DNA of 64,000 bases from a virus: IMG/VR virus record IMGVR_UViG_3300025000_000053, positions 62,001-126,000 of that record; one strand, given 5' to 3'. Made by a program: the position numbers and the translations under genes. The stretch's first letter is position 1; each line of letters begins with the position of its first letter. Positions 1 to 30,933 of this stretch are shown here, one piece after another. Under the pieces are notes generated by a model. That model was given only the letters and a program-made list of their open reading frames with translations. It ran no database searches and was not told the DNA's origin.

Positions 1-44
1 TCTAATAAATTCTCAGCAGCTTTAATTATATTTTCATTTACCAT
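1..44 (-). CDS. Start of an unidentified gene, cut by the left edge
   Basis: An ATG at 44 is preceded by a G-rich Shine-Dalgarno stretch (GGGGG), and 14 codons (starting MVNENIIKAAENLL) run off the window. It follows the YopX-like gene closely, so it is probably in the same operon. Too short to identify. Confidence 0.5.
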   Translation of the reverse strand, partial: MVNENIIKAAENLL

Positions 45-53
45 GGTGACCCC

Positions 54-365
54 CTAATTTAAATTTAGTCTATTATTTTGATATATATTACCAACAATTT
101 CACAAATTGAATTAACATCTTTTAATTGATAGCCTGCATAAAAGATACCATCTTTAAAAGTCACTGGTTTAATAGTTTCTTCTTTTTCTGAAAAGAAATT
201 TTTATATTTCACTAAAAATCCACTATAAATTTTTTTACCATTTTTATCCCGTAATCCAGTATATAAAAGTTTCTTATGACTATCTGGGTTTAAAGTTAAA
301 CCTCTTCTTATATCAATAATTCTACCATCACAAGTTATTACACATTTATCTTTTTTCATATTCAT
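54..365 (-). CDS. YopX-like small protein
   Basis: The 103-aa product carries the pattern of phage/prophage YopX proteins: YTGLRDKNGKKIYSG near residues 35-49 and a C-terminal EIVGNIYQN. YopX proteins are common phage accessory proteins of unknown function. There is no Shine-Dalgarno directly before the ATG. The nearest AAAGGAGG lies about 50 nt upstream, in front of a TTG-started 18-codon frame that ends inside this gene, so translation may be coupled to that leader. Identification rests on motif recall. Confidence 0.75.
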   Translation of the reverse strand: MNMKKDKCVITCDGRIIDIRRGLTLNPDSHKKLLYTGLRDKNGKKIYSGFLVKYKNFFSEKEETIKPVTFKDGIFYAGYQLKDVNSICEIVGNIYQNNRLNLN

Positions 366-417
366 TTTTATTTATATACCAAATAAGGAATTCAATATTC
401 AAAATAAAGAACCTCCT

Positions 418-696
418 TTATTCAACCGGAATTAAAATTACTGCTGGTATACCTCTAGGTTTATCGGGACATAAATCTTTCTCAGAAAACCCCTGTGCAA
501 TTAACTTATCCGACAATTTTCTGATATATATCCCACCAGAAGTTTTAGTAGTTTTATCAGGTAAATAAATACATTTTTTTATTTTTTCCAGTGGTTTTAT
601 ATTCTCGGTACTTCTAGGATTGTTTCCTATGACAAGTATATCATTGTCATTGTAAGGTTTTAGTAATTTAATTAAATCTTTTTTTCTTATATACAT
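418..696 (-). CDS. Small protein of unknown function
   Basis: I do not recognise this 92-aa protein. ATG at 696 (MYIRKK) is preferred over the upstream in-frame ATG at 711, because GGGGG lies 8 nt before it. The gene sits directly after the 716-1150 gene and before the YopX-like gene, apparently co-transcribed. It is lysine-rich with no membrane segment. Confidence 0.7.
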   Translation of the reverse strand: MYIRKKDLIKLLKPYNDNDILVIGNNPRSTENIKPLEKIKKCIYLPDKTTKTSGGIYIRKLSDKLIAQGFSEKDLCPDKPRGIPAVILIPVE

Positions 697-715
697 ATTT
701 TTTACCCCCATAAAT

Positions 716-1150
716 TTATTTTATTGAACTATTATATATACTAAAAACCTCTTTTACAATTTTATCAACTGTAGGAGAATTAATTCTATTACAACTAAAT
801 TCAATTTCATATTCATCAGTAACTGGAATTTCTTTTAATTCTTTTTTATTACTGAAAATACTTAAAAATATGTTATGGTCTGTTCGTGTATTTTCTAAAA
901 TCATTGTATATCTTTTTGCATGATAAATATGTTTCTCTAAAAATCTACAAAAATATATTTTACTGGAAAAATAATCCCCTGTAGTAAAGTCTTTCATATT
1001 CTTTGCATATATAACTCTATTCTTTTCTAAATCTAAATACCAAAAATACTCAGTATTATCATTTAGAGGATAAATTCTCCAATCTTCTTTATAACCAAAA
1101 TATTTATATATTAATTCCTGTAACTTAAAATATTTATCAAGTAATTTCAT
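716..1150 (-). CDS. Protein of unknown function
   Basis: A 144-aa soluble protein rich in aromatic residues, not recognised. A GAGGAGG ribosome binding site precedes the ATG. It is the second gene of the unit that starts at 1321. Confidence 0.75.
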   Translation of the reverse strand: MKLLDKYFKLQELIYKYFGYKEDWRIYPLNDNTEYFWYLDLEKNRVIYAKNMKDFTTGDYFSSKIYFCRFLEKHIYHAKRYTMILENTRTDHNIFLSIFSNKKELKEIPVTDEYEIEFSCNRINSPTVDKIVKEVFSIYNSSIK

Positions 1151-1168
1151 TTTTCCTCCTCATTTAAC

Positions 1169-1321
1169 TTATATTTTAATATCAATAACTAAACCACCAT
1201 TACTATTTTCAGATGGTTTTTTATCCTTTTTTTTCTTTTTCTTTTCTACTTTCTTTTGAAACTTTTCTAACATATCAAATACATCATCAATACAGAAATT
1301 ATCAACGTCTATTTTAGCCAT
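1169..1321 (-). CDS. Small lysine-rich protein
   Basis: Fifty residues beginning MAKIDVDNF. This start is chosen because AAGGAG lies 9 nt upstream; longer in-frame starts would run into the promoter-like element. There is a run of lysines in the middle, and the C-terminus is GLVIDIKI, nearly the same as the last residues of the RNA polymerase beta C-half (19562). Function unknown. Confidence 0.65.
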   Translation of the reverse strand: MAKIDVDNFCIDDVFDMLEKFQKKVEKKKKKKDKKPSENSNGGLVIDIKI

Positions 1322-1353
1322 ATAAAACATCTCCTTTTTTATTTTATTTAAAT

Positions 1354-1366
1354 AATAATATATATT
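1354..1366 (-). promoter_or_regulatory. Early-type promoter element (TATATTATT)
   Basis: Read on the minus strand this is AATATATATTATT, about 30 nt before the gene starting at 1321 and just after the terminator of the preceding unit. The same element recurs before most minus-strand units here and resembles the early promoter reported for phiKZ and AR9. Confidence 0.55.
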
Positions 1367-1399
1367 CATATATGATTTTGTTGTTGAAATAATAAAAAA

Positions 1400-1425
1400 T
1401 AAAATCCAATAATTATTGGATTTTA
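1400..1425 (-). terminator. Hairpin terminator
   Basis: Perfect 11-bp stem (TAAAATCCAAT) with an AATT loop, directly after the stop of the gene at 1442. Confidence 0.75.
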
Positions 1426-1441
1426 TTATATAATAAAATAA

Positions 1442-2092
1442 TTAATATTTCTCTAATAACTTACTAAATTTATTAACTAATAATAAGGATAAATCTTCAT
1501 CCTTTAAGTTAATGTTATTAGCCTCTTTGCCAAATAAATAAATTAAACGTGTGATACCAAACTCAGAAACCAATGAAGTTATTTTTTCTTTACTTTTTAT
1601 TGATAAAGGAATTTTTATTTCTTTTTCAAATAAATTAAAAAATATCTCATCCTCTTTAGAAGGAGTATAGTACAGTCCATGAATTGCCCAGTTTCTAACT
1701 ATAGAAACAAAATAACCAAAAGTCTGTTTTTTCTCATCATCTTTTCTAGAAAATACATCTATGGCCGCTTCTAAATATTTAATAGGGTTAAGCTTACGTG
1801 AAGTAAGATAAAAATATAATTCTTTTATACCCTTAACTTCAATATCATGTTCATGAATATTTGGGGATATATTTTTCCTATAATAATTTATTAAATGGTC
1901 TATTTCAGTACCAACTTTATCAACTTTATTCTGAGTATTATTTTTTGTCTGCATTCTACTCCATGCTGACCTAACTGTAGTGATAAGTATATTCTTATCT
2001 TTTGAGAATTTCTTTAAACCATCCAATTTGTCATCTTCAACATATTTAATTAATTCATTTTTTAAATCATTCGTCCAATTAATACGTTTCAT
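1442..2092 (-). CDS. Putative Myb/SANT-like DNA-binding protein
   Basis: This 216-aa protein starts with a short tryptophan-containing helical module (INWTNDLKNELIKYV, then a second helix with SAWSRM near residues 42-47). It resembles Myb/SANT-like DNA-binding modules seen in some phage and Bacillus regulators. The remaining 150 residues are helical and unrecognised. It is transcribed alone, with an element at 2131-2144 and a terminator at 1400-1425. A regulatory role is an inference. Confidence 0.6.
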   Translation of the reverse strand: MKRINWTNDLKNELIKYVEDDKLDGLKKFSKDKNILITTVRSAWSRMQTKNNTQNKVDKVGTEIDHLINYYRKNISPNIHEHDIEVKGIKELYFYLTSRKLNPIKYLEAAIDVFSRKDDEKKQTFGYFVSIVRNWAIHGLYYTPSKEDEIFFNLFEKEIKIPLSIKSKEKITSLVSEFGITRLIYLFGKEANNINLKDEDLSLLLVNKFSKLLEKY

Positions 2093-2130
2093 TATCTACA
2101 TCTCCTATTGTATTTTTAAATGAATTATAT

Positions 2131-2144
2131 AAATAATATATATT
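2131..2144 (-). promoter_or_regulatory. Early-type promoter element (TATATTATT)
   Basis: On the minus strand AATATATATTATTT, about 40 nt before the ATG at 2092. About 25 nt downstream of the terminator of the preceding gene. Confidence 0.55.
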
Positions 2145-2177
2145 CATATATAATTTTGTTGTTGAAATAATAAAAAA

Positions 2178-2207
2178 ATAAATCTAAGAAATTAATCTTA
2201 GATTTAT
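2178..2207 (-). terminator. Hairpin terminator, duplicated sequence
   Basis: A 12-bp stem (ATAAATCTAAGA) after the gene at 2216. The whole hairpin, including its loop and flanks, is repeated at 2883-2912. Confidence 0.75.
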
Positions 2208-2215
2208 TAAATTAA

Positions 2216-2830
2216 TTATATTTTTTCATGAAATTCTAAAACGGGTCTCCAACCAATATCAATTGATGAATATGCTGGCGGACAATTAAAATAACCTAAG
2301 TTTTCACCATAACCATTAAATGAATATGTTGACCTTGGTTGAGAAAACATATTTGGTAACTTTTGACACCATGAATAAATATAAAGCCACTTTTTTAGTT
2401 CAGATTTATTAGAATTATTTTTTATAACTTCATCTATTTCAGGTATATTAAATTCATCAGGATCAAGTTTTTCACTACCATTCATCATTAGTCTAAGTTT
2501 AGAATGTGGTAATGCTGAGCTAATATTAATAATTTTTTCACCATATACTAATCCATGTTCATGAAGGGTATCTATTGATATATTGATTAAAATAACTCTA
2601 TCACATATTAAGATTTTTTTATAACCATTTTTAATAACATGCCATTTTAATTTATCCTGTTCATCAGACTCTAAGTTTCCAATTGTCCATTTAGACATAT
2701 CAGGTAATGTTAAAAAGTCTGATATATCACTCTCTTCCCCTTTTTCAATCCATGGTCTCTTTGGTAAAGGTTGAATAACACCATCTCTTAATAGTACACC
2801 TAAATTAGTAATTCCATGATATTCTAACAT
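2216..2830 (-). CDS. Protein of unknown function
   Basis: A 204-aa protein with ATG after AGGGGGTG. The C-terminal stretch (aromatic-rich, ending near GWRPVLEF) loosely resembles the end of DUF6273-type modules such as the one at 27699, but I cannot make a firm assignment. It lies between the two copies of an identical terminator. Confidence 0.7.
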   Translation of the reverse strand: MLEYHGITNLGVLLRDGVIQPLPKRPWIEKGEESDISDFLTLPDMSKWTIGNLESDEQDKLKWHVIKNGYKKILICDRVILINISIDTLHEHGLVYGEKIINISSALPHSKLRLMMNGSEKLDPDEFNIPEIDEVIKNNSNKSELKKWLYIYSWCQKLPNMFSQPRSTYSFNGYGENLGYFNCPPAYSSIDIGWRPVLEFHEKI

Positions 2831-2882
2831 TTTACACCCCCTAAATATTTTTTTATTATTTATGTTATTTAAATAATAAAAA

Positions 2883-2912
2883 ATAAATCTAAGAAATTAA
2901 TCTTAGATTTAT
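2883..2912 (-). terminator. Hairpin terminator, duplicated sequence
   Basis: Same 12-bp stem and loop as at 2178-2207, located after the gene at 2923. Confidence 0.75.
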
Positions 2913-2922
2913 TAAATATAAA

Positions 2923-3402
2923 TTAAGTAATTTTATTATTAGCCGCTAATAAATACATTATTACATTTGCAGTAATTTCAGGGTCTTCAATATTAAACCC
3001 AGTTATTAATTCTATAGTTTCCATATAGTTTTTAAAATAAAAGTATTCTAAAAACTTAATTGCTTTTTTAGTAAATTCTTCTTCATTTAATTTACTAACA
3101 TTTTTCCAATTACGAATAATAACTTCAACAGTACGTTCAGGTTGATAATTTTCTGTTCCGAACCCACCATACCAACCTGAAGTTAAATAAGCAACTAAAC
3201 CGGCAAATGAACTAGTTTTAATATTTTTAATTCCAGGATACTTTACAATTGAATAATAAAGAGCATTATTTAAAACAGAATTTCCATGTTCTTTATCTTC
3301 ATTAATATTAGTACATTCTTTAGAATTTAATAAATTCAATACTTTATTTTCTTCAGTGGGATTATCAAAATATTTTAAAATAATATCTTCATTTAATAAC
3401 AT
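2923..3402 (-). CDS. Protein of unknown function
   Basis: A 159-aa protein, mostly helical with an internal glycine-rich turn (SGWYGGFG, about residues 75-82). AAGGGG precedes the ATG. It sits downstream of the gene at 3423, with little space between them. No family recognised. Confidence 0.7.
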   Translation of the reverse strand: MLLNEDIILKYFDNPTEENKVLNLLNSKECTNINEDKEHGNSVLNNALYYSIVKYPGIKNIKTSSFAGLVAYLTSGWYGGFGTENYQPERTVEVIIRNWKNVSKLNEEEFTKKAIKFLEYFYFKNYMETIELITGFNIEDPEITANVIMYLLAANNKIT

Positions 3403-3422
3403 TATTAAAACAACCCCTTTTT

Positions 3423-3767
3423 TTAGTTTAAAGTACCTTTAATTTTTTCAATAAATATTTCAGCATCAACTAATAAGTCCTTTCTTAATTTAGCAAAAGA
3501 ATTATTACGACCTATATTATACATATTTAATAATTCAGCTATAATCACTTTTTCTGATCTGTTATCAATATTCAGATTTTTAACGGACTTTTCTAAATTA
3601 AGGAATAATTGGGAATATTCTGGATTATTTTTAAGTGTTACTTCAATATAATTTTTACTATTTAACTTCCCAATACAACCATCTAAATCATATTCATCAG
3701 GAATAAAGACATATAAGTATTCATCATTTTCATCAAATTCTTTATATAAAACCAATCCTTCCATCAT
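3423..3767 (-). CDS. Protein of unknown function
   Basis: About 114 aa. ATG at 3767 (MMEGLV) is favoured, since AAGGAG ends 5 nt before it; a longer frame begins with an alternative codon at 3782. It follows the PurA-family gene immediately, so the two are probably co-transcribed. Not recognised. Confidence 0.65.
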   Translation of the reverse strand: MMEGLVLYKEFDENDEYLYVFIPDEYDLDGCIGKLNSKNYIEVTLKNNPEYSQLFLNLEKSVKNLNIDNRSEKVIIAELLNMYNIGRNNSFAKLRKDLLVDAEIFIEKIKGTLN

Positions 3768-3785
3768 TAACACTCCTTTCATATA

Positions 3786-4799
3786 CTATAATTCAATTAA
3801 AGTTTTTTTACCTGTACCAATATAATTAATCTTACAATTTATTTGGATTTCAAATTTTTGTATATACCTTTTAATAATATCCGACACTACATCCGCCGAT
3901 TCATTACATGTATAATCAATATAATCTAAATGATTCATAACAACTATATTTGGTTTGTTTACCATTATTGCTCTCTTAACAAGATCTGCATCAAACTTAC
4001 CAACTCTTCTTTTTCTTAATGTAGCTGATGTATATTCAGTTAAATCAATGTCGGACCCATATATAGGTAGTCTTTCCCATGATATTTCATTTTCTAATGG
4101 ACCTGAATTACCTCCAACTCTTATTGGAAAAGCTCGAATAACCATAATAATATTTTCGACATCAAATGGACTCATTCCAGATTCCATTAAAAATCCTGCC
4201 GCAGTTGTATCTCTGCTAGTACAATATGGGTAATTTTTAGAATGAATTGGTGATAAGTCGAACCCCTGTGTACCCTCAATAATAACATGTTTACCTTCAT
4301 CTAAAAGGCCTCTTAAATATGTTTTTGTATCACAAATATATTTTTTTATACAAGCACAATCTTTAGCAAAAGTTATATTAGATGTTCTTTTCAACCTTTG
4401 GATAACGGCTTGTCCTGTCCCACTTTCAGTAGAACCAATACTAAGCTGTAATCTATCTTCTCTTTCACTTATTTTCATACATTCATCAATAATAACTGCA
4501 AATGGGTCTATTTTAAGATTATTGTTTTTAACCTGTGTTTTATTTATTTCTTGAAATAAAATACCCAAATCAATATACGAACCACTAGGCAGTATACTAA
4601 CAATATTTTCATCAATAGAAACAGTAGGTAAAATTCTTAATACAAACTCACCTTTATTTTCATCGACAACAATATGACCAGAGTTAGTCCCACCTACACG
4701 TACAACAGCAGAAGCTTTTAATTTCTGTGAGAAAAAATATGATACCTTTCCTTTACCCTCAGAACCATACTGCCCACCTACTATAATAGAGATTGGCAT
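3786..4799 (-). CDS. purA: Adenylosuccinate synthetase family enzyme, PurZ-like
   Basis: The 337-aa protein has the family's ordered motifs: a phosphate-binding loop (GGQYGSEGKGK, residues 8-18), VGGTNSGH, a GTGQ segment, EGTQGFDLSP followed by YPYCTSRDTTAAG, RVGG, and TLRKRRVGKFD near the C-terminus. PurA joins IMP and aspartate using GTP. At about 337 aa it is shorter than typical bacterial PurA (about 430 aa) and close to the archaeal/phage short form. The catalytic Asp of the bacterial GDEGKGK motif (Asp13 in E. coli) is Ser here. As I recall, loss of this Asp marks phage PurZ, which uses dGMP in the 2-aminoadenine (Z-DNA) pathway. Family membership is firm; the substrate is open. Confidence 0.92.
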   Translation of the reverse strand: MPISIIVGGQYGSEGKGKVSYFFSQKLKASAVVRVGGTNSGHIVVDENKGEFVLRILPTVSIDENIVSILPSGSYIDLGILFQEINKTQVKNNNLKIDPFAVIIDECMKISEREDRLQLSIGSTESGTGQAVIQRLKRTSNITFAKDCACIKKYICDTKTYLRGLLDEGKHVIIEGTQGFDLSPIHSKNYPYCTSRDTTAAGFLMESGMSPFDVENIIMVIRAFPIRVGGNSGPLENEISWERLPIYGSDIDLTEYTSATLRKRRVGKFDADLVKRAIMVNKPNIVVMNHLDYIDYTCNESADVVSDIIKRYIQKFEIQINCKINYIGTGKKTLIEL

Positions 4800-4829
4800 C
4801 TAGATACCTCCCTTTAATATATTAATACC

Positions 4830-4865
4830 TTTTAATACCATAAAAAATTTTATATGGTATTAAAA
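4830..4865 (-). terminator. Hairpin terminator
   Basis: A 13-bp perfect stem (TTTTAATACCATA) between the gene at 4878 and the PurA-family gene, ending the unit upstream of purA. Confidence 0.75.
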
Positions 4866-4877
4866 TATAAAAACATA

Positions 4878-5597
4878 TTATTTATTTTTTTCTTCTTTAT
4901 CCCATGTAAAATAATCTTTATATAATAAATCTACTTCTTCTTCACTTAATACTTCCCATCTACTTCTTTGTAATTTAGAAACCATGTTTCTATAACACTT
5001 ATCATTTTCTTTACACATATCGTCAGCTGTATCAATATCATCAATAATTTTCCATAAATGATATAGTTTTTCCCGATTATTAAGTGCTAAACAAATATCT
5101 TTAGCTTGATCAGGACTTTTACATTCGATTATTAAGTTATCATGTTCATCATAAATGTTATTAACATAATTCTTACCAACAACATATTTACAAATTTTAT
5201 TATCTATAAACCTTCCTTTACCTTTAATCAAATCTTTAATACATGTATACCTATAATTTAATTCTTTTCTTATTTCATAACATCTATTATTAATTTTAGA
5301 AAATATATCTTCCCACTTCTTATCGTACTCATATTTACTATTTTCATAACTATTTATAACTAAGGCGAGTTCACGTATAAGAAGTTGTATTTGTTCATTA
5401 GCTGGTATAATGGTATAAATATTTATTAAAGGAATTTTAGATTCATCATTTTCTTCAGGAAAAGTTGTATGTGCATAACAATATTTAAAACTATTTAAGG
5501 GTTCATTAACAAATTGAACAACTACATTAATATCAGGATACAATTCTGTCATAACCTTATTTACAGTTTCAAACGGGTCATTAACAATTTTTATCAT
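4878..5597 (-). CDS. Protein of unknown function
   Basis: 239 aa from ATG 5597 (MIKIVND), which has AAAGGAGG 9 nt upstream; longer in-frame starts lie inside the previous gene. The N-terminal 90 residues (extended strands, then LLIRELALVINSY) recall the layout of the HExxH protein at 42500 but lack the zinc-binding histidines. The similarity is weak and no function is assigned. It overlaps the end of the preceding gene by 17 nt. Confidence 0.7.
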   Translation of the reverse strand: MIKIVNDPFETVNKVMTELYPDINVVVQFVNEPLNSFKYCYAHTTFPEENDESKIPLINIYTIIPANEQIQLLIRELALVINSYENSKYEYDKKWEDIFSKINNRCYEIRKELNYRYTCIKDLIKGKGRFIDNKICKYVVGKNYVNNIYDEHDNLIIECKSPDQAKDICLALNNREKLYHLWKIIDDIDTADDMCKENDKCYRNMVSKLQRSRWEVLSEEEVDLLYKDYFTWDKEEKNK

Positions 5598-6522
5598 TAC
5601 AATTTCCTCCTTTATTTTTGTTATATTCATGAAGATACTTAGCATTGTTTTTAGTAAGAGAAATTAATTGTCTAAAATTTTCTTTAGCTTTAAGATAATT
5701 TTCTCTTAATAATTGAAGTCTTTTCCATTTATCTTCATTCCATCCAAACTTTTTATTAAATTCTTTAAAAAATTCTAATTCACTACATTCATCATCAGTA
5801 TCTTTACAATCCCAACCACAAATAATCCCATAAATCCAGGCATCCTCTTTACATTCACTAAAATCTTTAGAACTAAATGATATTGTACGCTCTAAAGATT
5901 CAAAAGGGTTTTCATTAAGAGTTAAATCATCAATAGAACTAGCAAGAATATTAAGTTCCTCAGGATACATTTTAACATCTCTCCTTATTACAGATATTTT
6001 AATTTTTTCTTCTGTTATTATACCGTCTTCTAAAAGATTATGCAGTTTATCAAGATCGACATCTTCTTTCTGAACTTTAACTTGAATCCAATTTGGTTCA
6101 TGTTTTCTATAGTCAAGAAAGGTTTTAGGCTCTTTACCTAAAACTTTTTTAAACATTTCTACAACCCTTTCACCAGCTGCCTTACATTTAACAAATCCAG
6201 CAAGATCATAGCCAACCCCTCTTGATGAAAACCATTCTCCACCATTTTCAGGAGGGTTATCAGGTCTTACATAAGGGTGTGAGGGTATACCTTTTCTTGG
6301 ATGTTCTTGTAAATTTGGATATATTGGTGGAGAACCGAAACCTATACAAGATTCTTTCACTCCGTCTGATAAAACTACAAAGAATCCATCACATTCACCA
6401 CATTTTACAGGATGTGAACCACCACCTGAAATAACAGTACCATAACAATACTCACATCCACAATGTACACAACCATATTGTTTAAAATTAGATGCACTTA
6501 CAGCAATAATTTCATTACTCAT
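5581..6522 (-). CDS. Zinc-ribbon protein of unknown function
   Basis: 313 aa from ATG 6522 (MSNEII), chosen because AAGGAG lies upstream. Near the N-terminus, CVHCGCEYC and CGEC form a likely zinc knuckle or ribbon. A proline/glycine-rich stretch follows, then a charged helical C-terminal half ending in a Cys-containing tail. Not recognised. It is followed by an overlapping gene, indicating translational coupling. Confidence 0.7.
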   Translation of the reverse strand: MSNEIIAVSASNFKQYGCVHCGCEYCYGTVISGGGSHPVKCGECDGFFVVLSDGVKESCIGFGSPPIYPNLQEHPRKGIPSHPYVRPDNPPENGGEWFSSRGVGYDLAGFVKCKAAGERVVEMFKKVLGKEPKTFLDYRKHEPNWIQVKVQKEDVDLDKLHNLLEDGIITEEKIKISVIRRDVKMYPEELNILASSIDDLTLNENPFESLERTISFSSKDFSECKEDAWIYGIICGWDCKDTDDECSELEFFKEFNKKFGWNEDKWKRLQLLRENYLKAKENFRQLISLTKNNAKYLHEYNKNKGGNCNDKNC

Positions 6523-6542
6523 TATATCCATCTCCTTAAATT

Positions 6543-6890
6543 TTATACATAATTTTTTCTTTTTAATTGTTTCTGTTTAGCAACATTTATTCCATTAACA
6601 TCATCCATCAGTAGTACTAATCCTAATATTCTAATTAGATTTCCAAGGTTTTCCCCTTTCCATAAATATAATCTAACATCATGTATTTTATTACTGTTAT
6701 CAGTTAATTTCATTTCAAGCTCTATATTTTCCGTAAAAAAGTTAAATATCTTGTTTAACTCAGAAATCGAATCAGTAACTAATAGATCATACTCCAATAA
6801 ACTTTCTAATTCCCCATGACCATAAATACCAGATAAGTTATGATAATTATCATTACACAAAACATTCTTATGATTAACACTATATAACAT
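6543..6890 (-). CDS. Protein of unknown function
   Basis: A 115-aa protein with AGAGG before the ATG; not recognised. It lies in an apparent operon 8546 to 4878. Confidence 0.65.
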   Translation of the reverse strand: MLYSVNHKNVLCNDNYHNLSGIYGHGELESLLEYDLLVTDSISELNKIFNFFTENIELEMKLTDNSNKIHDVRLYLWKGENLGNLIRILGLVLLMDDVNGINVAKQKQLKRKNYV

Positions 6891-6910
6891 TTTTATTACC
6901 TCTTTATAAA

Positions 6911-7498
6911 TTAATCAATAACTTTAAAATCATAAAACACAAGATATTTATCAATACAAGTTGTAAAATCAGTTTTAATAATTTTACCATATGACCATTC
7001 TAAACAAATGTGTTTATCCATTTCAATAAAACCTTTTACTTTACAAAAAATATGGCTTAGATACCTAATAAAATCATTAAAAAGATTTATTGGAGCATTA
7101 GGATGAGTATACTCAATCACTATTCCAGTACCAATAGATTTTTTTAATATTACATAAAAATCTGGATTAATAATAGGAAAAAAGTAAGGATGAGGATGGT
7201 CTCGTCCCTCAATAATAATTAACTTTTTAGATATATCTATAGTTCCATTAAAAATAGTTATAAAACAGGGGTAATAAATGATTTTAATATTTGGAATTTT
7301 AGAGAATTCCAAATATTTTAGTTTTGCTTCATGTGGAGTTAAAGCAATATCTAAACTAACAAATTTATTATTTTTGTCAACACAATTTATAGTATAAAAA
7401 GTATCGTCTAATATTGTTTCTTCTGTCATATATTTCATTGAAACTGGTCGTAGTCCTAATTCCTTAATTATACTAGTGTCTTGTTGAAAATTATACAT
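6911..7498 (-). CDS. Protein of unknown function
   Basis: A 195-aa, strand-rich protein with AAGGAGGTG before the ATG. No recognised motif. The stop codon of the upstream gene lies only a few bases away, indicating one transcript. Confidence 0.7.
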   Translation of the reverse strand: MYNFQQDTSIIKELGLRPVSMKYMTEETILDDTFYTINCVDKNNKFVSLDIALTPHEAKLKYLEFSKIPNIKIIYYPCFITIFNGTIDISKKLIIIEGRDHPHPYFFPIINPDFYVILKKSIGTGIVIEYTHPNAPINLFNDFIRYLSHIFCKVKGFIEMDKHICLEWSYGKIIKTDFTTCIDKYLVFYDFKVID

Positions 7499-7502
7499 TT
7501 AT

Positions 7503-7871
7503 TTACACCTCCTTGTTAGTCTTTCCTGTAATCTGTTCAAATATAATAGAAGTGCCAGTTATTTTAATAACAAATAAACTAAAAATTCTATTACCAAATT
7601 GAATTCTAATTACATCTCTAACATCTATTTTATCTCTATTTCTAATAGAAGTAATAAAATTCGGATTAAATATTTCTTGTATATCACCATTATCTTTTTT
7701 AACAAATAAAAGTTTATCTTTAAAATCTAATTCTTTAACTTCTTCATAAAAATCTATTACTTTTACAGCTCCACCACCTATACCACTACTTTTACAGGCT
7801 TCAGAAATAGAAGTACCTCTAATCATTTCTACTTTACCATCTTTCCAATGTAATCTATAAATATTCATCAT
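7503..7871 (-). CDS. Protein of unknown function
   Basis: A 122-aa protein beginning MMNIYRLHWKDGK, with GGAGA upstream; either of two adjacent ATGs may serve. It contains a GIGGGAVKVIDFYE turn. Not recognised. Confidence 0.7.
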   Translation of the reverse strand: MMNIYRLHWKDGKVEMIRGTSISEACKSSGIGGGAVKVIDFYEEVKELDFKDKLLFVKKDNGDIQEIFNPNFITSIRNRDKIDVRDVIRIQFGNRIFSLFVIKITGTSIIFEQITGKTNKEV

Positions 7872-7898
7872 TTTTATTAAATCTCCTCTATAATTTAT

Positions 7899-10728: not shown

Positions 10729-13700
10729 TTAAATATCTTCTTCTATACCATTCATTTTAATCTTAATATAAAAAAGATTTGTATTTTCATTCTCCTTCCT
10801 TTTAACTTGAAATTTATTATTAATATCTCTTATAGATTTAATTCTATCTAAATATTCTTCTTTATTTTCATAATCAAGTGAAACAAAACATTTATTTGGT
10901 TCGTCTTCTTTACGATAACTAAATAAATCTTTTTCAAATAAACATTTAAAACTCTCTGGTTCTCTTGAATCATCAAAGAATAATCCATGAGTTTTACAGA
11001 ATGGTGTTACAATACCTGAAGTTCCCATAATGTTCATATAGATAGTTAATCTATACAGTTCTCCTATGAACTTCCCTAAGCTTTCCTTAGGATATCAGAC
11101 TATATCACCATCTCTATATAATAATATTTAATATAGAGAGTTACCTATTTCGATTTAAGGGATTTTCACCCACTCACTTGAGCCCTACTCCTAATGCTTA
11201 TTTCAAAGCTAAAGGATAGTCGTTGAACTTTATTCTTATATATAATAAGAATCTTAGCTGCGGATCACTCAATCTTTTACCTTGTTACCATACCCTAGAT
11301 AGTTAGTCTAAGCCATTATATTATTACTAATATAACTTGGTAGTAAAAGCTCTAAGAACTTCCCCGACAATTAAAGTAATTTTCATTATAGATTATTCCA
11401 TAATGTCCCAGATTTTACATTTCTAGGATCTGAATTGCCGCATACGTTAATATCGAGCTTCCCAATGTAAGATGGGTGAATATCACGATATTTTTTTGAT
11501 ATCCTATTATCATTCTTGTTCCCAACACTATTCGGTTTTTAATTCACATAGATCGTTAATCTATGCAGTTCTCTTATGAACTTCCTTATCTCTCGATAAG
11601 ATAATAGACTATATCTTCATCCATTATATAATCAGTATAATGGAGTTTCCTATTTCGATTTAAGGGATTCTCACCCACCTACTTAGGCCCTACTCCTATT
11701 GTGTATTCCAACACTAAAGGATAGTCGTTGAACTTTATTGTTATATTAAAAAGTATAGTTTTTTGATATATGCACCCATGAAATCCTTTTTTTTATTTTC
11801 CATATTAATCCATTGTATGCCATATTTATTTGTATATTTTTAGATAACATATTTAATTCCTCTTTTATTTCATAAGTGGAATATTTCTTTTCTAATAAAT
11901 TACATATATCATGAATTAATTTTGCTGAATATTTGTTATACACATGGGATTCACCCTTAGACGGATGTTGTAATCCTTTAATCCATGAATGTTCAATATT
12001 CTCTTTAGGAGTAACCCATTCTAAATTCTTATAATAATTATTACCTTTAAAAGTATCCTTATGATTAATTTGAATAATTTTTTCATTGAAAAATATTTTT
12101 AGTGGTAAAAAATAATATCCAACTAATCTGTGCACATAAAATTTTCTCCTTCTAGTATAAATAGCTACCAATGAACATCTTAAATATCCATCTTTATCAA
12201 CAAATGGTTTTATAAGTTTATCAGTTAGTTTATTTCTAACTCTACCATAATTACTAATTTCATATATGTCTTTTACATTATATTCTATAATGTCTTTCCA
12301 TTCTTCTTCATGGGTTTGAATGTGTATTATCATTTAAAACACCTCTTAATATAACAATCTTAGCTGCGGATTACTCAATCCTAAAACCTTTTTACCATAC
12401 CTTAGTTGATTAGACTAAGCCACTATATTGTTCCCAATATAGTTTGGTAGTTTTAGGCTATAAGAGATTTCCCGACAATTAAAGAAAACACAGGCCCTTA
12501 ATTGACCTTTAATAGTATATCTCAGTTTACTAAAAAAGTCCATATCATTTATTTTATCATCAAATCTCAATAGTCCTGAATCATGTAAATTCTGAATTAA
12601 TATATCGCCTGGGAATTTAAATATTTCTTCAATATTTTCTAAAGTCATTTTATTACCTAAACTTATAACTCTATTCATTCTTTTACTAAATGCTTTAGTT
12701 AATAAAGAAGCAATATATTCATTACATCTTAATCTTTTATTGTCTATAGATAAATTATCTTTCTTTCTTAATTCATCAAAATTTTGAATCATCCATCTGA
12801 TAACTGAATAAACATTCTTTCGATGTTCATAGTCTATCTTCAATATATTCTTAGTAGTTTCATCTATTAATCTATCAAAGAAAACTAAAGTATTTAATCC
12901 TTTTTCATAATAATTATAAGCCATAGTAGCACTTAAGCTACCGATACGTCCAACCCAATACTCTAAATCATTTAAAAATTCAAAACTTAATCTATTATTA
13001 GAAACATTTATAATCATGAAAACTATACTCTGTACATATAGATATTTGTTAAAGAAGAATCTATTTACTTTTATTAATATTTTCTTATTAATACGAAAAT
13101 ATATATATTTGTCTAAATCTACTTCTGTTTCAGTAAATTCTATAATAGAATCTAGTGAGAAATATTTAAGTGTTTTTTCAACACCCATTTTAGCAAAATA
13201 AAATAAAAGTACATCGACTTCTTTTCTAAACACAAATACCCCATAAGTATTAGCAGTATAAGTTTCTCCTTGAGTATCTGGATATTCCTTTTTATTTCTT
13301 TTTAAAGATAATGGCATTAATGATTTAAGAATTAAATTCTGTTTGGTTGTATAAGTTGAACTATCAACAAGTTGATATATTAAGAAATATTTTTTACCTT
13401 TAATAGTGTAATAACCATTTTCATCTGGAATTGGTATTAATAATTTCTTAGTAAATAATTTACTCTTATTCTTACAATTTAAATTAAATCTTAGTTTTAA
13501 TTCCCCATATCGACTATCTTGTAAATACATATATTTTTCTGAAACTTTTTTATTTCCTTCTTTAGTTTGTTTAACTTTCTGTCTTGTTGATATATAATCA
13601 TTGATATCAATCTTAGATTCATCATCAATGAATTCATATCCAAGAAATTTGATATTCTTAAGAATCTCTAATGATTTACAACTATTAGCAATATAATGAA

Positions 13701-19561: not shown

Positions 19562-22446
19562 TTATATTTTAATATCAATAACAAATTTTCCTTCATTAAA
19601 TTTCCTTTTTTCAATCTCATCATCTATAAGTTTTTCAAAATCTCTTTTAGTTCCAACAAATACTTTATTTTCTTTATATTCATTAGTAATGTCAATTCTT
19701 CTTTTAATATCTTCAAATTTTTTATTATCAGTTAAGAAGAACTTTCCATTATAAAATTTACCTTCAAGATGTCCAGTATTAATCTTTATATCAAATAGGT
19801 CATTATTAAATTCTATACCTAATCCCATTGATTTTAAAAATACCGATAATATTTCAATATTTCTATTTTTAAAATTTGCTTTATACTTAAAATCTTTTAT
19901 AGGATTTAATCTTGTCATTAAATTTTTACCTAAATCACGTCTACCTATAACTGATGACCTATAGAATAGATGTAGTTGAGCTATTAGTTCAGTTGGAACC
20001 CCTATATTAGTATTAAGATTTTCATCAATACCTATTCTTATAGGAGTTTTAGAATAAAGTTCCTGGTGAGTTTTAGCTTTATTAGATTTTTCAGGTAATC
20101 CTTTTCTTGATAAAGTTCCAGTTGATCTAGCTGAAAAACCTTTCTTAGCTGTTTGCATTAATTTCATTACATACATATCTCCAACTATTAATTTCTTCAT
20201 CATTTTAATCTTTCTACCAAATCTATTTACATAAACATCATATTGTTCAATCCAATCATGTTCTTCATATAATTTAATAAGTTTATCAAATAAGAATTCC
20301 TCTTCCCATAAAGGAGGTATATGAATAAATATACCTTCTTCAACTAAATTATTGAAAAATTCTTCCTTACCAATGATACTCAATTTTCTTAAATATTCTC
20401 TTAACTTTTCTTCCTGGTCTTTATTAAAATAACTTATTATATTAAGAAACAAATCTTCTTTTTCTTTCATATTAGTCAGTGTTTGAATACGGTCCACTGT
20501 TCTATTGCATATAAACGTAATTGATTGTTCAAAAAGCTGGTATGAGTTTACAATTGTTTTAGACCATATCTTCAGTCCTATAAAGAACTGCCTCCCGTTT
20601 CGGGTTTCCCCTACTCTACTCGCTTCTTCAGTTATAGATAAATTATAACTTATGCTTTCGATGGCCGTTGAGCACATTTCAAATATTACTATTTGAAACT
20701 TCGCTGCGGATTACTCAATTTTAAACCTTTTTACCATATCTGAGTAGTTACTTCAGCCCTTATCTATGTCACCATGATAAGTTGGTAGTTTAAAATTATC
20801 GAACTTTCCCGCAATTAGAGAGGTTTTAGATCGCCTAAACCTTACCAGTCCAGCGATTGATTACAGATATTGAATTAAATAGAATATCAACACGCTCTCC
20901 AGTTTCTAAGAATGGCATTTCATTATCAGGTAATATTTTTGATATAACACCTTTATTACCATATCTCGTTAAATTCACATAGATCGTTAATCTATGCAGT
21001 TCTCTTATGAACTTCCCTAAGTTTCCTTAGGATACTAGACTATCTCTTCATCTCTATAAAATAATATAGAGAGTTACCCACTTCGATTTAAGGGGATTTC
21101 ACCCACTCACTTGAGCCCTACTCCTAATGCTTATTTCAAAGCTAAAGGATAGTCGTTGAACTTTATTCCTCATTATAAGGAATCTTAGCTGCGGATTACT
21201 CAATCTTTTTATTATATAATAAAAAGCTCTAAGAGCTTCCCCGACAATTAAAGTAATTTTCTATATATGTTACCATATATAGGGGCTAAGCTACATAACC
21301 CGTTATTTTTTGCCCTACTTCTAAATAAGCATTTTTTTCAACTAAAAATTCTATTACTATATTAGAAAATACCGAGTTATTTTCTTCTCTCCACTTATAC
21401 TTTTCATCTAATATATTCTTAGCTTTTCTCATATAAAAACTAACTTCTCTAGAATATTTAGAACCAGAATCAATTATCTGTTTACATCTTTTAAATATCT
21501 TCTCATAATAAACTAATTGCATTTTATAATATTTCATTATTTGTCTATTAAAATCATTTTCTTCTAATTCATCTAAAGTTTTATTACAATAGATATCTAT
21601 ATCAATAATTTTACCTTTACCCTCAATAAAGAATAATACATCTGAAGTAAAATCAATCTTTCTAAGATTAGATTTCTTTAAATCATATAACAATTGATTG
21701 TTATGAATTCTTCTCTTAGCACAAATTACCTTATCTTTAACATATTCATTTATATCAGGAAAAGTTTTATAATTATTACTATTGCCATAAATATTACAAA
21801 ATATATCATTATCATTTAAAGAAACTTTAACTCTTTCAACTTCTGTTGAAACCATTCTTTTTGATAATGACTCAGAACAAACAATAGCATCTTCAATAGT
21901 ATTATTTTCTAAAAGGTACATAAATTTAACATTAGTACCATAACAATAATTCATATCATCATCATAAGATGTACTCTTATAAAGAACTTCGCCTTTATTT
22001 ATTGAATTACCAACTTCTTTATTATCAATATTATTGGTATTATACTTAAAACCATATCTTTCTGTTAAGTCTTCTACAGATTTCTTTTCTATAATATCAT
22101 ATTTATCATTTTCTTTATCATATACAAATAATAAATAAAATTGTTCTTCATTTTTATCATCTGTAAATTTACTTATTTTATCAATAATAACACAATTATT
22201 TTTAACCTTTTTGAAACCAGTAGAATTCTTACCTACTATATTCTCATAATTAGTAAAAATTCTTGGAAACTCAGGTTCATTTAAAGTAACACATTGTTTC
22301 AAATGAGCAGTAAACATAACATTCCTTGATGAACTAATATATCCTGGATTAGTTAATAACGTCATCCCAAATATATCATCTTTACCTTTAAATTCTTTTT
22401 CTTTCTCTTGTAGTATCTCTTTTAGTGACATTGTGGTTTTATACAA
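19562..22446 (-). CDS. rpoB: RNA polymerase beta subunit, C-terminal half, spliced from three exons
   Basis: Exons are 22446-21298 (383 codons), 20966-20852 (115 nt) and 20550-19562; the sum is 751 codons, so 750 aa. Exon 1 ends VGQKITG and exon 2 begins [13 protein letters not shown]. Together they give the RpoB active-site motif G(R)HGNKG, with Lys388 matching a universally conserved lysine. Exon 2 ends in NR and exon 3 continues [10 protein letters not shown], the NRLNxxQLxEQ motif. The C-terminal region holds FSARSTG-like clamp contacts. It complements the N-half gene at 10729. TTG is the likely start, 8 nt after AAGGAGG. The last residues, KFVIDIKI, are shared with the small protein at 1169. 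Confidence 0.92.
20551..20851 (-). ncRNA. Group I intron, divergent type, in rpoB C-half
   Basis: 301 nt. The P (AATTGCGGGAA), Q (GAGTAATCCGCAGC), R (CTCAACGGCC) and S (AAGATATGGTCT) elements are all present. The P7 helix differs from the other introns by paired changes (GGCCA with TGGTC instead of GACTA with TAGTC), so base pairing is kept. The 5' exon end AATCGCU pairs with a GGCGAU guide over six pairs. The splice interrupts a Leu codon, T then TA. Confidence 0.85.
20967..21297 (-). ncRNA. Group I intron in rpoB C-half, at the GNKG motif
   Basis: 331 nt with standard P, Q, R and S elements. The 5' exon ends ACGGGU, paired by a GCCC guide. Splicing joins VGQKITG to RYGNKGV. Sequence and guide are nearly the same as the intron at 30086, which sits in another gene. 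Confidence 0.9.
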
Positions 22447-22536: not shown

Positions 22537-24491
22537 TTATGCCGCTTCTTTAAATTGTTTATCTTGTGATTTTTCTAATCTATCGCATAATTCAAAAATA
22601 TTTAACAATTGACCATTTTCTTCTGGTTCAACATGTGATAATTGTTTTTCCAATATAGGTAATGATCTATTAAATAATTCATATCTTAATTTTTCATTAG
22701 TAAGAAATTCTTTTCTAAATTTCCTACTATCAAATTTAATATCTTTTACTCCTTCAATATATTTATAAGGATTACGTCCAGCAATTAACTCATTATCTTC
22801 AGCAAATCTTAATTGAGTTAAAATTGGATCAAATCCAGTAGACTGATCATATATAAGATTTACAAATTGACCAGCTTTATTTGTTCTAGATTTTAAAAAT
22901 TCAGCTCTTACACCAAAACCATCAAAACCATGTTCATCTTTTTTAAATTTTTCTGAACCTATAGCTATGAAGTTTATTAATAAATTAGCATAATAAATCG
23001 TATATTCACATTAGTCGTCAGCCAATGCAGTTCTCTTCTCTTATGAACTTCCTTATCTTTCGATAAGATACTAGACTATATCTTCATCCTTAATAAATTA
23101 TTTATTAAGGAGTTACCCATTTCGTAAAGAACTTTTTAAGTTCACCCTACCATTATTGACTTGTAGGTCTACTCCTCAGTCTAAATTAGACTTCATCAGA
23201 TAGTCGTTGAACCTTTCTCATAGTAATAATATGAGACTTGGCTGCGGATTACTCAATCTTTTTATTATATAATAAAAAGCTCTAAGAGCTTCCCCGACAA
23301 TTAAAGTAATACTAACATAATATTACTATTATGCCACCCTAAATTTAGGTGCATTCCCACCCGTAAAGTTCACATAGGTCGTTAGTCTATGCAGTTCTCT
23401 TATGAACTTCCTTATCTTTCAATAAGATACCAGACTATATCATTAACCTAATAATTTCTTATTGGGCTACTTCCTATTTCGATTTAAGGGATTTTCACCC
23501 ACTCACTTGAGCCCTACTCCTAATGATCATTTCAGATCCACTGGGATAGTCGTTGAACTTTATTCTAATAATTTACTAGAATCTTAGCTGCGGATTACTC
23601 AATCCTAAAACCTTGTTATTAATATAATTTAGTAGTTTTAGGCTCTAAGAGCTTCCCCGACAATTAAAGAAGTTTTCAACATACATTTCTGTATGAGGCC
23701 CCACAAATCTCTAGTTTAGGGATACTCTGGTCCATCTTCATATATAATAATTGTGGTTGTGTTTTATGCATCGGATTTATTTCCATCTTTTGATTAATGT
23801 GGTTTATAGCAATAACATTTATATTATATGCTTTTATAATTGGCATTAATCTTTTATAGAATTGAGCTAATGCTTTAGCAACTCTATTGGCATATGTCCC
23901 ACCTTCCATTTCATTAGAAGTATCTTTTGAAGCAACTGTTGGTATTGAATCAATAATCATTACAGTTGGAACAAATGCCTTTATTGGTCTATTAAATTCA
24001 TCAACTAATCCAGTATTATACATATAATCTTTTCTATTAGCTTCTTTTTCTTGAGCTATTTCTACTATACTATTAAAAATATCTTCAATATAATTTTTTT
24101 CTTGCTTTAAAATATATTTATCATCAAGTTCTTGTTGAGTCATAGATGTTACATTTTTTATTCTAGTATATGATAAAACTTGTTCTAAATCAAAATGTTG
24201 AACAAATGCATTGTCACTGAATCGTCTAACAATATTAGCTGCAATCTGAATAGCAAAAGTAGTTTTGGCAGTACCAGACTTACCTATAATTGTCATAAAT
24301 GTGCCACCCACTATACCAATAGATGAATAAGTTGTTATGAGTTCCTCATCCAAATTCCTAACTTCAATCATATATCCATTTCTATAGTCAAATGGTACAA
24401 ATCCTGTTGGATAACAAATAGAAGTTTGTGTTGCATTAAATAATCCTTTTTTATCCTTTTCTCTTAATCTTGAAAGCATTTTATTAGCCAT
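22537..24491 (-). CDS. recA: RecA/UvsX-type recombinase, spliced from three exons including a 15-nt micro-exon
   Basis: Exons are 24491-23718 (258 codons), 23361-23347 (5 codons, GGNAP) and 22998-22537; total 416 aa. Walker A is GKSGTAKTT (residues 70-78) and Walker B is VMIIDS (177-182), followed by IAINHINQK. Exon 1 ends MDQSIP. Joined to GGNAP and then IYYANLL it rebuilds the RecA loop L2 region (compare GGKALKFYA). The C-terminal 100 residues are charged and helical. The protein pairs and exchanges DNA strands in phage recombination. A GGGGG ribosome binding site precedes the ATG. Without splicing the frame stops shortly after each exon. Confidence 0.88.
22999..23346 (-). ncRNA. Group I intron in recA, second intron
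   Basis: 348 nt with P, Q, R and S elements. The upstream exon end GCACCU pairs with a GGGUG guide over five pairs, placing the 5' splice after the GGNAP codons. The 3' site follows the G of ATATACG. The exon then reads IYYANLL in frame. Confidence 0.85.
23347..23361 (-). other. recA: 15-nt micro-exon of recA (GGNAP)
   Basis: Five codons lie between two complete group I introns. They supply the Gly-Gly-Asn-Ala of RecA loop L2. The right end is set by the upstream intron's terminal G, and the left end by guide pairing of the downstream intron and by the RecA motif. Reading on past CCT gives five more codons (KFRVA) and then TAA. Confidence 0.82.
23362..23717 (-). ncRNA. Group I intron in recA, first intron
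   Basis: 356 nt with P, Q, R and S elements. The 5' exon ends AUCCCU, paired with a GGGG guide. The 3' site is after the G of CTTTACG. It joins MDQSIP to GGNAP. Confidence 0.87.
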
Positions 24492-29887: not shown

Positions 29888-30933
29888 TTATTTTAAAGAT
29901 TTTTTAACCAATAAACCTTTTGTAACTAGATCACTAGAAATTCCCATTGATATTAAATGCACATCAATTAAATTTAATGTTACCTTATTTTCAACATTAT
30001 TAGTTAAACTATCTAAAGAAACAAATCCTTTTTGGGCTATAAAGGCATACATTTCATTTTTCATAACCATATCATCTGCTCTAGGCGTAAAAGTTCATAT
30101 TGTTTGTTAAACAATACAGTTCTCTTATGAACTTCCCTAACTTTCATTAGGATACCAGACTATATCATTAACCTAATAATTTCTTATTGGGCTACTTCCT
30201 ATTTCGATTTAAGGGATTTTCACCCACTCACTTGAGCCCTACTCCTGTTGCTTATTTCAAAGCTAAAGGATAGTCGTTGAACCTTTCTCTAATATATTAG
30301 AGACTTAGCTGCGGATCACTCAATCTTTTTATTATATAATAAAAAGCTCTAAGAGCTTCCCCGACAATTAAAGAAGTTTTCTATATATGTTACCACATAT
30401 AGGGGCTAAGCTATGTAACCCATGAGTTCTCGTAATGCATCATTAGCTCCAACAGATAATAAAGAAAAGTTTTCTTGATCTGATTCCCTAGCATTTTTAT
30501 CTTCACCAACAACCTGACCAGTCATTGCAGAACGACTTGAACTCTTTGTTGATAAAGTATTTTTTTTACTTAAGAATTGTTGCATTCTTTTAATATGGAC
30601 ATAACCAACAGGTACTTCATATTTAGTAATAATTGGATTATCAATACTGTTATTGACAAAAGGTACTACAACTCTTTCAAATAAAGGTATATCTAATACT
30701 TTTGCAGCTTTTGTTATATTTTCAATATTTAATTCTCTTTCATAATCAATCATATCTAAAATAAGATATTGCTCAATATCTTTAAAAAATTCTTTAAAAA
30801 ATATATCAAATTGATTATCAGACATTGATTGAAACATGTCTTTATATTTTTTAGTATTCGCATCTGTTGGGTCTAATGCACTAAATGTATCATAAATCAA
30901 TTTTTCCATTTTTTTTCTTTTGTCTTTAGTCAT
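29888..30933 (-). CDS. Second RNA polymerase beta C-terminal subunit, spliced from two exons
   Basis: Exons are 30933-30418 (172 codons) and 30085-29888 (66 codons with stop), giving 237 aa. The VPVGYVHIKRMQQF stretch, SSRSAMTGQVVGEDK and ELMG-PRADD (the last formed by splicing) match the C-terminal module of phage beta subunits. The gene at 19562 already has its own version of this region, so this one probably belongs to a different polymerase. An AACA-N6-TA late-type promoter lies upstream, fitting a virion-packaged RNA polymerase expressed late. The rest of that beta would lie outside the window. Confidence 0.8.
30086..30417 (-). ncRNA. Group I intron in the second beta C-terminal gene
   Basis: 332 nt with P, Q, R and S elements. 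The 5' exon ends ATGGGU, paired by a GCCC guide. Splicing gives ELMG-PRADD. Its first 70 nt are nearly identical to those of the intron at 20967. Confidence 0.9.

What the first reader, a model, noticed from the sequence alone, without database searches (positions are those of the whole stretch)
3786..4799. PurA-family enzyme with the catalytic Asp replaced by Ser, as in PurZ
The P-loop reads QYGSEGKGK instead of QWGDEGKGK. This Asp is the general base of PurA; as I recall, phage PurZ lacks it and uses dGMP to make the 2-aminoadenine precursor. The short length (337 aa) also fits. If the enzyme makes dZMP, the genome might contain 2-aminoadenine, which would be remarkable in an AR9-like phage (AR9 and PBS1 replace T with U). 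No DatZ, MazZ or DpoZ gene is seen here, but the window is partial.
Basis: partly seen in the sequence, partly recalled or inferred. Interest (0 to 1): 0.75.

Follow-up and report, generated by a model that had tools for sequence, protein, structure and literature searches.

The report
Bacterial PurZ-like enzyme in jumbo phage
A giant AR9-like phage carries a purine-nucleotide enzyme of the type that phages use to make the rare base 2-aminoadenine, but its closest kin are not phage genes: it comes from a little-known gene cluster scattered through bacteria and archaea, so it does not by itself show that the phage has unusual DNA, and it points to an unstudied cellular nucleotide pathway.

Summary
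In detail: window 3786-4799(-) encodes an intact 337-aa PurA-superfamily protein with Ser where PurA has its catalytic Asp. The PurZ reading is half right. All Ser-bearing proteins (phage PurZ, phage PurZ0, this one) form one clade apart from PurA, and the protein has other PurZ-type pocket features (Ser131, Thr273, a 'GNSG' insertion; S-2L numbering) with a PurA/PurZ0-type Asp in the donor-base pocket. But it does not belong to PurZ or PurZ0 (AU test p=0.0003). It nests, at 57-61% identity, among chromosomal proteins of Clostridia and Fibrobacterota. That cellular family spans 18 phyla, archaea included, and sits in a conserved operon: nuclease-kinase fusion, PurZ-like, dCTP-deaminase/dUTPase-fold protein, often a deoxynucleoside kinase. 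I found no description of this operon in the papers available.

The phage is AR9-like and essentially complete. It has no DatZ, MazZ, DutZ, DmtZ or family-A polymerase, and it carries ThyX and thymidylate kinase instead of U-DNA genes. The gene lies in an 8-kb accessory island absent from a syntenic relative. Best reading: a captured cellular dGMP-to-succinyl-aminodeoxyadenylate synthetase, probably an accessory or counter-defence gene. A fully Z-substituted genome is unlikely.

The parts
3786..4799 (-). PurZ-like (Ser-type) adenylosuccinate-synthetase-superfamily gene, 337 aa
4746..4778 (-). P-loop GGQYGSEGKGK (residues 8-18); Ser13 codon at 4761-4763 replaces the PurA Asp
4674..4685 (-). NSGH motif (residues 39-42): Ser at S-2L position 50, specific to the cellular-operon clade (PurA, PurZ0 and most PurZ have NAGH)
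   Evidence: S in 33 of 33 cellular and 6 of 6 related viral proteins
4077..4115 (-). PurZ-type loop insertion GGNSGPLENEISW after the Val next to the ribose C2' (residues 229-241); absent from PurA
   Evidence: against the structural description in PMC8342488
4005..4031 (-). Asp-binding loop tip TSATLRKRR (residues 257-265); Thr at S-2L position 273 (Gly in PurA)
   Evidence: PMC8342488
3924..3935 (-). NHLD (residues 289-292): Asp at S-2L position 308, as in PurA and PurZ0 (guanine-nucleotide pocket); Asn/Gln in PurZ
1..7898 (.). window part of an 8.26-kb accessory island of about 15 small genes holding the PurZ-like gene (G000:61,639-69,898; begins 362 bases before the window). In the syntenic relative G027 the flanking genes lie 0.8 kb apart

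Best explanation
The gene encodes a dGMP-type succinyl-aminodeoxyadenylate synthetase (PurZ chemistry: dGMP + Asp + NTP, probably GTP, to N6-succino-2-amino-dAMP). The phage captured it from a cellular (clostridial or fibrobacterial-type) copy of a widespread PurZ-like operon, and keeps it as an accessory gene in a variable island. Shown: the Ser and the other PurZ-type pocket residues, the AlphaFold fold, the phylogenetic origin, the accessory position, and the absence of the known Z-pathway partners and of the operon partners. Inferred: the substrate and donor; that host PurB and kinases turn the product into dZTP; and the role, which I think is partial 2-aminoadenine labelling of phage DNA, or supply of a nucleotide that neutralises the host operon (counter-defence), rather than complete A-to-Z replacement.
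For: PurZ-side placement: 100/100 against PurA, with the query inside the cellular-operon clade next to L110-L112 (99/96). 61, 58 and 57% identity to those cellular proteins, against 34% to the best Z-phage proteins over the full length and up to 38% over shorter stretches. Pocket residues S23, S131, T273 and the loop insertion as in PurZ; Asp308 as in PurA/PurZ0. AF2 mean pLDDT 95.4; best structures 5k7x (archaeal PurA, Z 45.3) and 7vf6 (PurZ0, Z 44.8), a tie. Cellular operon conserved in 68 of 80 loci, with c2 directly upstream in 64 and c1 directly downstream in 56. Accessory island; no PF00709 match in the 218-kb and 234-kb relatives. purZ G+C 30.8% against 25.0% for the window (s.d. 2.9% per kb), weakly suggesting import.
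Against: I found no assay of any member of the cellular clade. That clade has its own Ser at position 50 and mostly His at 306 in the substrate pockets, so its substrate may differ from dGMP. The query has Ile where nearly all relatives have Thr/Ser at position 53 (donor phosphate contact). Known Z phages carry partners that this genome lacks. The NCBIfam PurZ model scores 219 bits, under its cut-off of 300.
Confidence: 0.55

Rival explanations
1. The phage has a 2-aminoadenine (Z) genome: its PurZ-like enzyme and unrecognised partners replace A by Z completely, copied by the phage's family-B polymerase.
For: PurZ-type active site. S-2L manages with a PrimPol that does not discriminate (PMC8065100 abstract), so DpoZ is not strictly needed. 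The genome holds a DUF5662 protein and a CYTH protein of unknown substrate.
Against: None of the partner genes found in Z phages: 55 of 80 viral PurZ-family loci had Dut/DmtZ-type partners within 10 kb, but none of the 10 in the query's clade, and none in the whole genome. The gene is in an accessory island and missing from relatives, unlike a core replication trait.
Confidence: 0.1
2. It is a functional PurA variant that uses IMP and boosts AMP/dAMP supply during infection.
For: Best NCBIfam score is the archaeal-type PurA model (260 bits, below its cut-off). Closest fold is archaeal PurA, tied with PurZ0. Asp308 is kept.
Against: The general-base Asp of PurA is Ser; Ser131 and Thr273 are PurZ-type; the loop that crowds the ribose 2' position is present. 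PurA is monophyletic without it. Cells with this paralogue also keep a normal PurA (14 of 15 genomes; the other is an incomplete MAG).
Confidence: 0.12
3. It makes another purine deoxynucleotide specific to the cellular operon (not dZMP), and the phage uses it to match or disarm that host system.
For: Invariant Ser50 in the base pocket and His306 set the clade apart from PurZ and PurZ0. The operon has its own kinases and a DCD-fold protein. Some operon flanks hold restriction-modification and HipA genes. The jumbo-phage copies lack all other operon genes in the stretches read.
Against: The rest of the dGMP pocket is PurZ-like. Defence by the operon is inferred only from neighbours, without a control set.
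Confidence: 0.23

Closest known systems
PurZ0 of Gordonia phage Archimedes (7VF6) and relatives (Wayne, Ghobes, Keanu, Zanella)
   Same: Ser for Asp, Ser131, Thr273, GNSG loop, Asp308 in the donor pocket; fold Z 44.8
   Different: 34-38% identity; separate clade (AU p=0.0003); NAGH instead of NSGH; these phages carry dutZ/dmtZ beside purZ, this phage does not
PurZ of phiVC8 and S-2L (6FM1, 7ODX)
   Same: Ser for Asp, Thr273, loop insertion after Val241
   Different: 28-30% identity; PurZ has Asn/Gln at 308 (ATP/dATP donor); DatZ/MazZ/DpoZ partners absent here
Archaeal-type PurA (P. horikoshii PH0438, 2D7U/5K7X)
   Same: Short form of the fold; Z 45.3; Asp308
   Different: Asp, Thr, Gly at positions 23, 131, 273 and no loop insertion; other side of a 100/100 branch
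Cellular PurZ-like operon proteins (L110-L112 and others), found here; no description in the papers available
   Same: 57-61% identity, same NSGH, same clade (99/96)
   Different: In cells the gene sits with a nuclease-kinase fusion, a DCD-fold protein and often a dNK; the phage has the synthetase alone

Membership tests
PurZ-side (Ser-type) clade of the PurA superfamily | Ser (or Gly) at the PurA Asp13 position and grouping apart from PurA | tested here: met
   (100/100); definition from PMC12884076
PurZ / PurZ0 of Z phages | Falls inside the phage PurZ or PurZ0 clade | tested here: not met
   Nests in the cellular clade; AU test against grouping with PurZ/PurZ0, p=0.0003
PurZ / PurZ0 of Z phages | Genome encodes nucleotide-pool partners (DatZ, MazZ/DUF550/DUF5664, DutZ, DmtZ) | tested here: not met
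   positive control
PurZ / PurZ0 of Z phages | Converts dGMP to dSMP | not testable with these tools
   Active-site residues are compatible; no assay
PurZ / PurZ0 of Z phages | 2-aminoadenine in virion DNA | not testable with these tools
   Needs mass spectrometry
PurA (EC 6.3.4.4) | Catalytic Asp13 | tested here: not met
   Ser13
Cellular PurZ-like operon family | Sequence clade with NSGH | tested here: met
Cellular PurZ-like operon family | Operon partners c1 (DCD fold), c2 (nuclease-kinase), c3 (dNK) alongside | tested here: not met
   No hit of their HMMs in the phage at E 0.01: a lone captured gene
AR9/PBS1-like jumbo phages | Shared core genes (split RNA polymerases, PolB, gyrase, portal, sheath) | tested here: met
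   78 ORFs match AR9 by tblastn; PolB closest to AR9/PBS1 group
U-DNA phages of the PBS1 type | dTMP phosphatase (Dtm), UGI and a PBS1-type Dcd | tested here: not met
   No Dtm or UGI homologue at E 1; a dCMP-deaminase fusion is present but beside ThyX and Tmk (PMC12697855)

The most novel reading that the evidence does not exclude
Bacteria and archaea of many phyla carry a mobile operon that makes a non-standard purine deoxynucleotide (2-aminoadenine deoxynucleotide or a close relative) with its own PurZ-like synthetase, DutZ-like hydrolase and kinases, used to mark DNA or to fight phages; jumbo phages have repeatedly captured the synthetase to evade it.
Probability: 0.22. Interest if true: 0.88.

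Novelty: new variant of a known kind. Interest (0 to 1): 0.6.

Why it matters
Published work, as far as the papers available here show, treats Ser-type PurZ as a phage enzyme with a few archaeal sequences at its base (PMC12884076). Here the Ser-type enzyme is found as a third, large cellular clade in a conserved nucleotide-metabolism operon across 18 phyla, and jumbo phages of several kinds carry strays from it. If the enzymes make dSMP, 2-aminoadenine nucleotides would be a cellular product, and the origin of Z genomes could be tested directly. It also warns against calling Z genomes from a Ser-type PurZ homologue alone.

Tried and rejected
1) Z genome from the gene alone: rejected as the default reading because partners are absent and the gene is accessory. 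2) U-DNA phage carrying Z as well (ZUGC): not supported by the gene set. 3) Jumbo-phage 'PurZ' hits in the phage collection: OR844989 is a Staphylococcus chromosome contig with an ordinary PurA, and I set the small unannotated Listeria records aside for the same reason without examining them. 4) Single-sequence scan of IMG/VR found only the twin contig; the alignment-based scan was needed. 5) The Ser in all genome-contig hits is partly by construction, since the search pattern required GS. An unconstrained search of 297 genomes of one order gave 4 further hits, and all 4 have Ser. 6) Absence from relative G028 (187 kb) is uninformative because its contig lacks that region. 7) Operon partners in the phage: none. 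9) Literature on the operon: no description found in the held papers; the 2023 PurZ0 paper is not held. 10) A defence role of the operon rests on neighbours only, with no random-locus control, so it is stated as a hypothesis. 11) A second AlphaFold job on operon proteins was not used.

Full report
Observation. The ORF at 3786-4799 (minus strand, 337 aa, ATG, good ribosome-binding site) is intact and is the only PF00709 gene in the 249,853-base virus record, of which the window is bases 62,001-126,000. Its P-loop is GGQYGSEGKGK: Ser replaces the Asp that is the general base of PurA (established knowledge). An independent contig carries the identical protein. NCBIfam scores are 260 bits for archaeal-type PurA and 219 bits for PurZ, both under their cut-offs; PHROGs gives phrog_1211, the synthetase of Z phages, at 5.6e-69. 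The known databases therefore do not place it.

The phage. 78 ORFs match Bacillus phage AR9 by tblastn at roughly 23-47% identity, including both RNA polymerases, family-B DNA polymerase, gyrase, portal and sheath, and the polymerase is closest to the AR9/PBS1 group. The last 21.6 kb of the record are colinear with its first 21 kb at 76-89% nucleotide identity. The contig thus closes on itself but ends in a related strain; the unit genome is about 228 kb and nearly complete, which makes absences meaningful. It carries anaerobic ribonucleotide reductase, ThyX, a dCMP-deaminase fusion and thymidylate kinase (the last three adjacent), and no homologue of the PBS1 uracil-DNA genes UGI or dTMP phosphatase (gene roles from PMC12697855). 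The gene set is that of a thymidine-making phage, not of a U-DNA phage.

Z-pathway partners. PMC12884076 reports that every PurZ0 genome has dutZ, and that PurZ genomes mostly have datZ with mazZ or DUF550. I searched all ORFs with DatZ, MazZ, DutZ, DmtZ and both DpoZ types and scanned 171 of the 172 proteins without an AR9 match, plus the dCMP-deaminase fusion, with Pfam (the PurZ-like protein itself). None was found: no MazG, dUTPase, NDT, DUF550, DUF5664, YfbR-type HD or family-A polymerase. The test works, since the same queries find Dut/DmtZ-type partners within 10 kb in 55 of 80 viral PurZ-family loci; yet they find none in the ten loci of the query's own clade.

Where the protein belongs. 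A scan of 84,980 prokaryote genomes returned at least 287 relatives; the best are 61, 58 and 57% identical to the phage protein, from a Fibrobacteria, a Lachnospiraceae and an Oscillospiraceae genome. Phage PurZ/PurZ0 enzymes are at most 38% identical. In trees all Ser-type proteins separate from PurA (100/100), and the phage protein falls with those three cellular proteins (99/96). Forcing it to join PurZ/PurZ0 is rejected (AU p=0.0003) (larger tree). Several other large viral contigs (81-312 kb) carry members at scattered places in the cellular part of the tree, so capture by large phages happened more than once. Fourteen of 15 cellular genomes checked also carry an ordinary PurA; the fifteenth is an incomplete MAG.

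The cellular operon. Around the cellular genes a conserved array recurs. c2 (about 690 or 920 aa) has an RNase_H_2 exonuclease domain, or PHP plus HHH_8, then a central domain with weak PADLOC PDC-S44 similarity, and a C-terminal nucleotide-kinase-like P-loop domain. Then come the PurZ-like gene and c1 (about 350 aa; dCTP-deaminase/dUTPase fold, best PDB profile matches dCTP deaminases, C-terminal membrane segment by eye). Often a 200-aa deoxynucleoside kinase follows (c3; 20 of 80 loci). Both c1 and c2 are present in 68 of 80 loci; the 80 loci span 18 named phyla including two archaeal ones; c2 ends directly upstream in 64 and c1 starts directly downstream in 56. c1 is distantly similar to the DutZ of Z phages. 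The c2 kinase domain is also fused to a PurZ-like protein in some phages (E down to 1e-19) and in three alphaproteobacterial genomes. The same kinds of enzymes thus travel with Ser-type synthetases in phages and in cells. The operon is rare and patchy (PurZ-like matches in 5 of 297 and 1 of 295 genomes in two orders), and some flanks hold type I restriction-modification, MmeI, HipA and RmrA genes. No paper found in the available library describes it.

Active site. With S-2L PurZ numbering (PMC8342488), the query has Ser23, Ser131 and Thr273 where PurA has Asp, Thr and Gly, and it has the loop insertion after Val241 that brings the valine closer to the ribose 2' position: all PurZ-type. It has Asp308, like PurA and PurZ0, where PurZ has Asn/Gln, which suggests a guanine-nucleotide donor (that PurZ0 uses GTP is from memory of the 2023 PurZ0 paper, which is not held). 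The cellular clade adds an invariant Ser50 (NSGH) in the base pocket and mostly His306. The query has Ile at 53, where all but one of the 33 cellular proteins have Thr or Ser. AlphaFold2 gives mean pLDDT 95.4, and the model is equally close to archaeal PurA (Z 45.3) and PurZ0 (Z 44.8). The residue pattern favours dGMP over IMP but does not prove it.

Role in the phage. In the syntenic 234-kb relative G027 the genes on either side of the island lie 0.8 kb apart, against 8.3 kb here. No PurA-family gene is found in that record or in a 218-kb relative; both are distant cousins (65-69% capsid identity). The operon partners are absent. The gene is therefore an accessory capture. I infer that it feeds a 2-amino-dA precursor into the host pathway, giving partial DNA labelling or interfering with the host operon; which of these is not decided by the data.

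Verdict. Ser-type synthetase confirmed; PurZ-like chemistry likely (about 0.55); membership of the phage PurZ/PurZ0 lineage rejected; fully Z-substituted genome unlikely (about 0.1). The unexpected result is the cellular operon, which makes a cellular 2-aminoadenine-type nucleotide pathway a testable idea.

Noticed in passing
L110-L189 (cellular loci), for example L122:3917-8718: Conserved operon of nuclease-kinase fusion (c2), PurZ-like synthetase, DCD-fold protein with C-terminal membrane segment (c1) and often dNK (c3), c1 and c2 in 68 of 80 loci across many phyla; uncharacterised in the papers available.
   Followed up: partly
L043, L050, L060, L085 (viral); L274-L276 (alphaproteobacteria): Single-chain fusions of an N-terminal nucleotide-kinase-like domain to a Ser-type PurZ-like synthetase; the viral ones form their own branch.
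   Followed up: partly
G000:1-21181 against G000:228254-249853: Contig ends are colinear at 76-89% nucleotide identity: the assembly closes the genome but runs on into a related strain, so the record is a partial chimera with unit length of about 228 kb.
   Followed up: yes
window 20541-20882, 21015-21307, 23051-23357, 23410-23727 (and repeats near 11033-11739, 30086-30421): Four group I introns by Rfam on the minus strand in the window, and related 200-350-base repeats dispersed through the genome.
   Followed up: partly
G000:129694-131820 (outside the window, L009:15694-17820): Complete polyphosphate kinase (PPK1, all four Pfam domains) encoded by a jumbo phage.
   Followed up: no
G000:162550-166077 (outside the window): Adjacent ThyX-like (444 aa, its RHR motif followed by non-standard residues), dCMP-deaminase fusion (456 aa) and thymidylate kinase genes: a dTMP module; ThyX and thymidylate kinase are not annotated in AR9.
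   Followed up: partly
G000:151773-153085 (outside the window): Neighbouring DUF5662 and CYTH-domain genes; CYTH proteins act on triphosphates, so these could be nucleotide hydrolases of unknown substrate.
   Followed up: no
OR844989.1 (L030): Public 'Staphylococcus phage SA 1306 Kay' record of 282 kb holds host chromosome genes (hutH, serS, dnaC, purA, walRK by eye) in the stretch read, so it looks mislabelled.
   Followed up: yes
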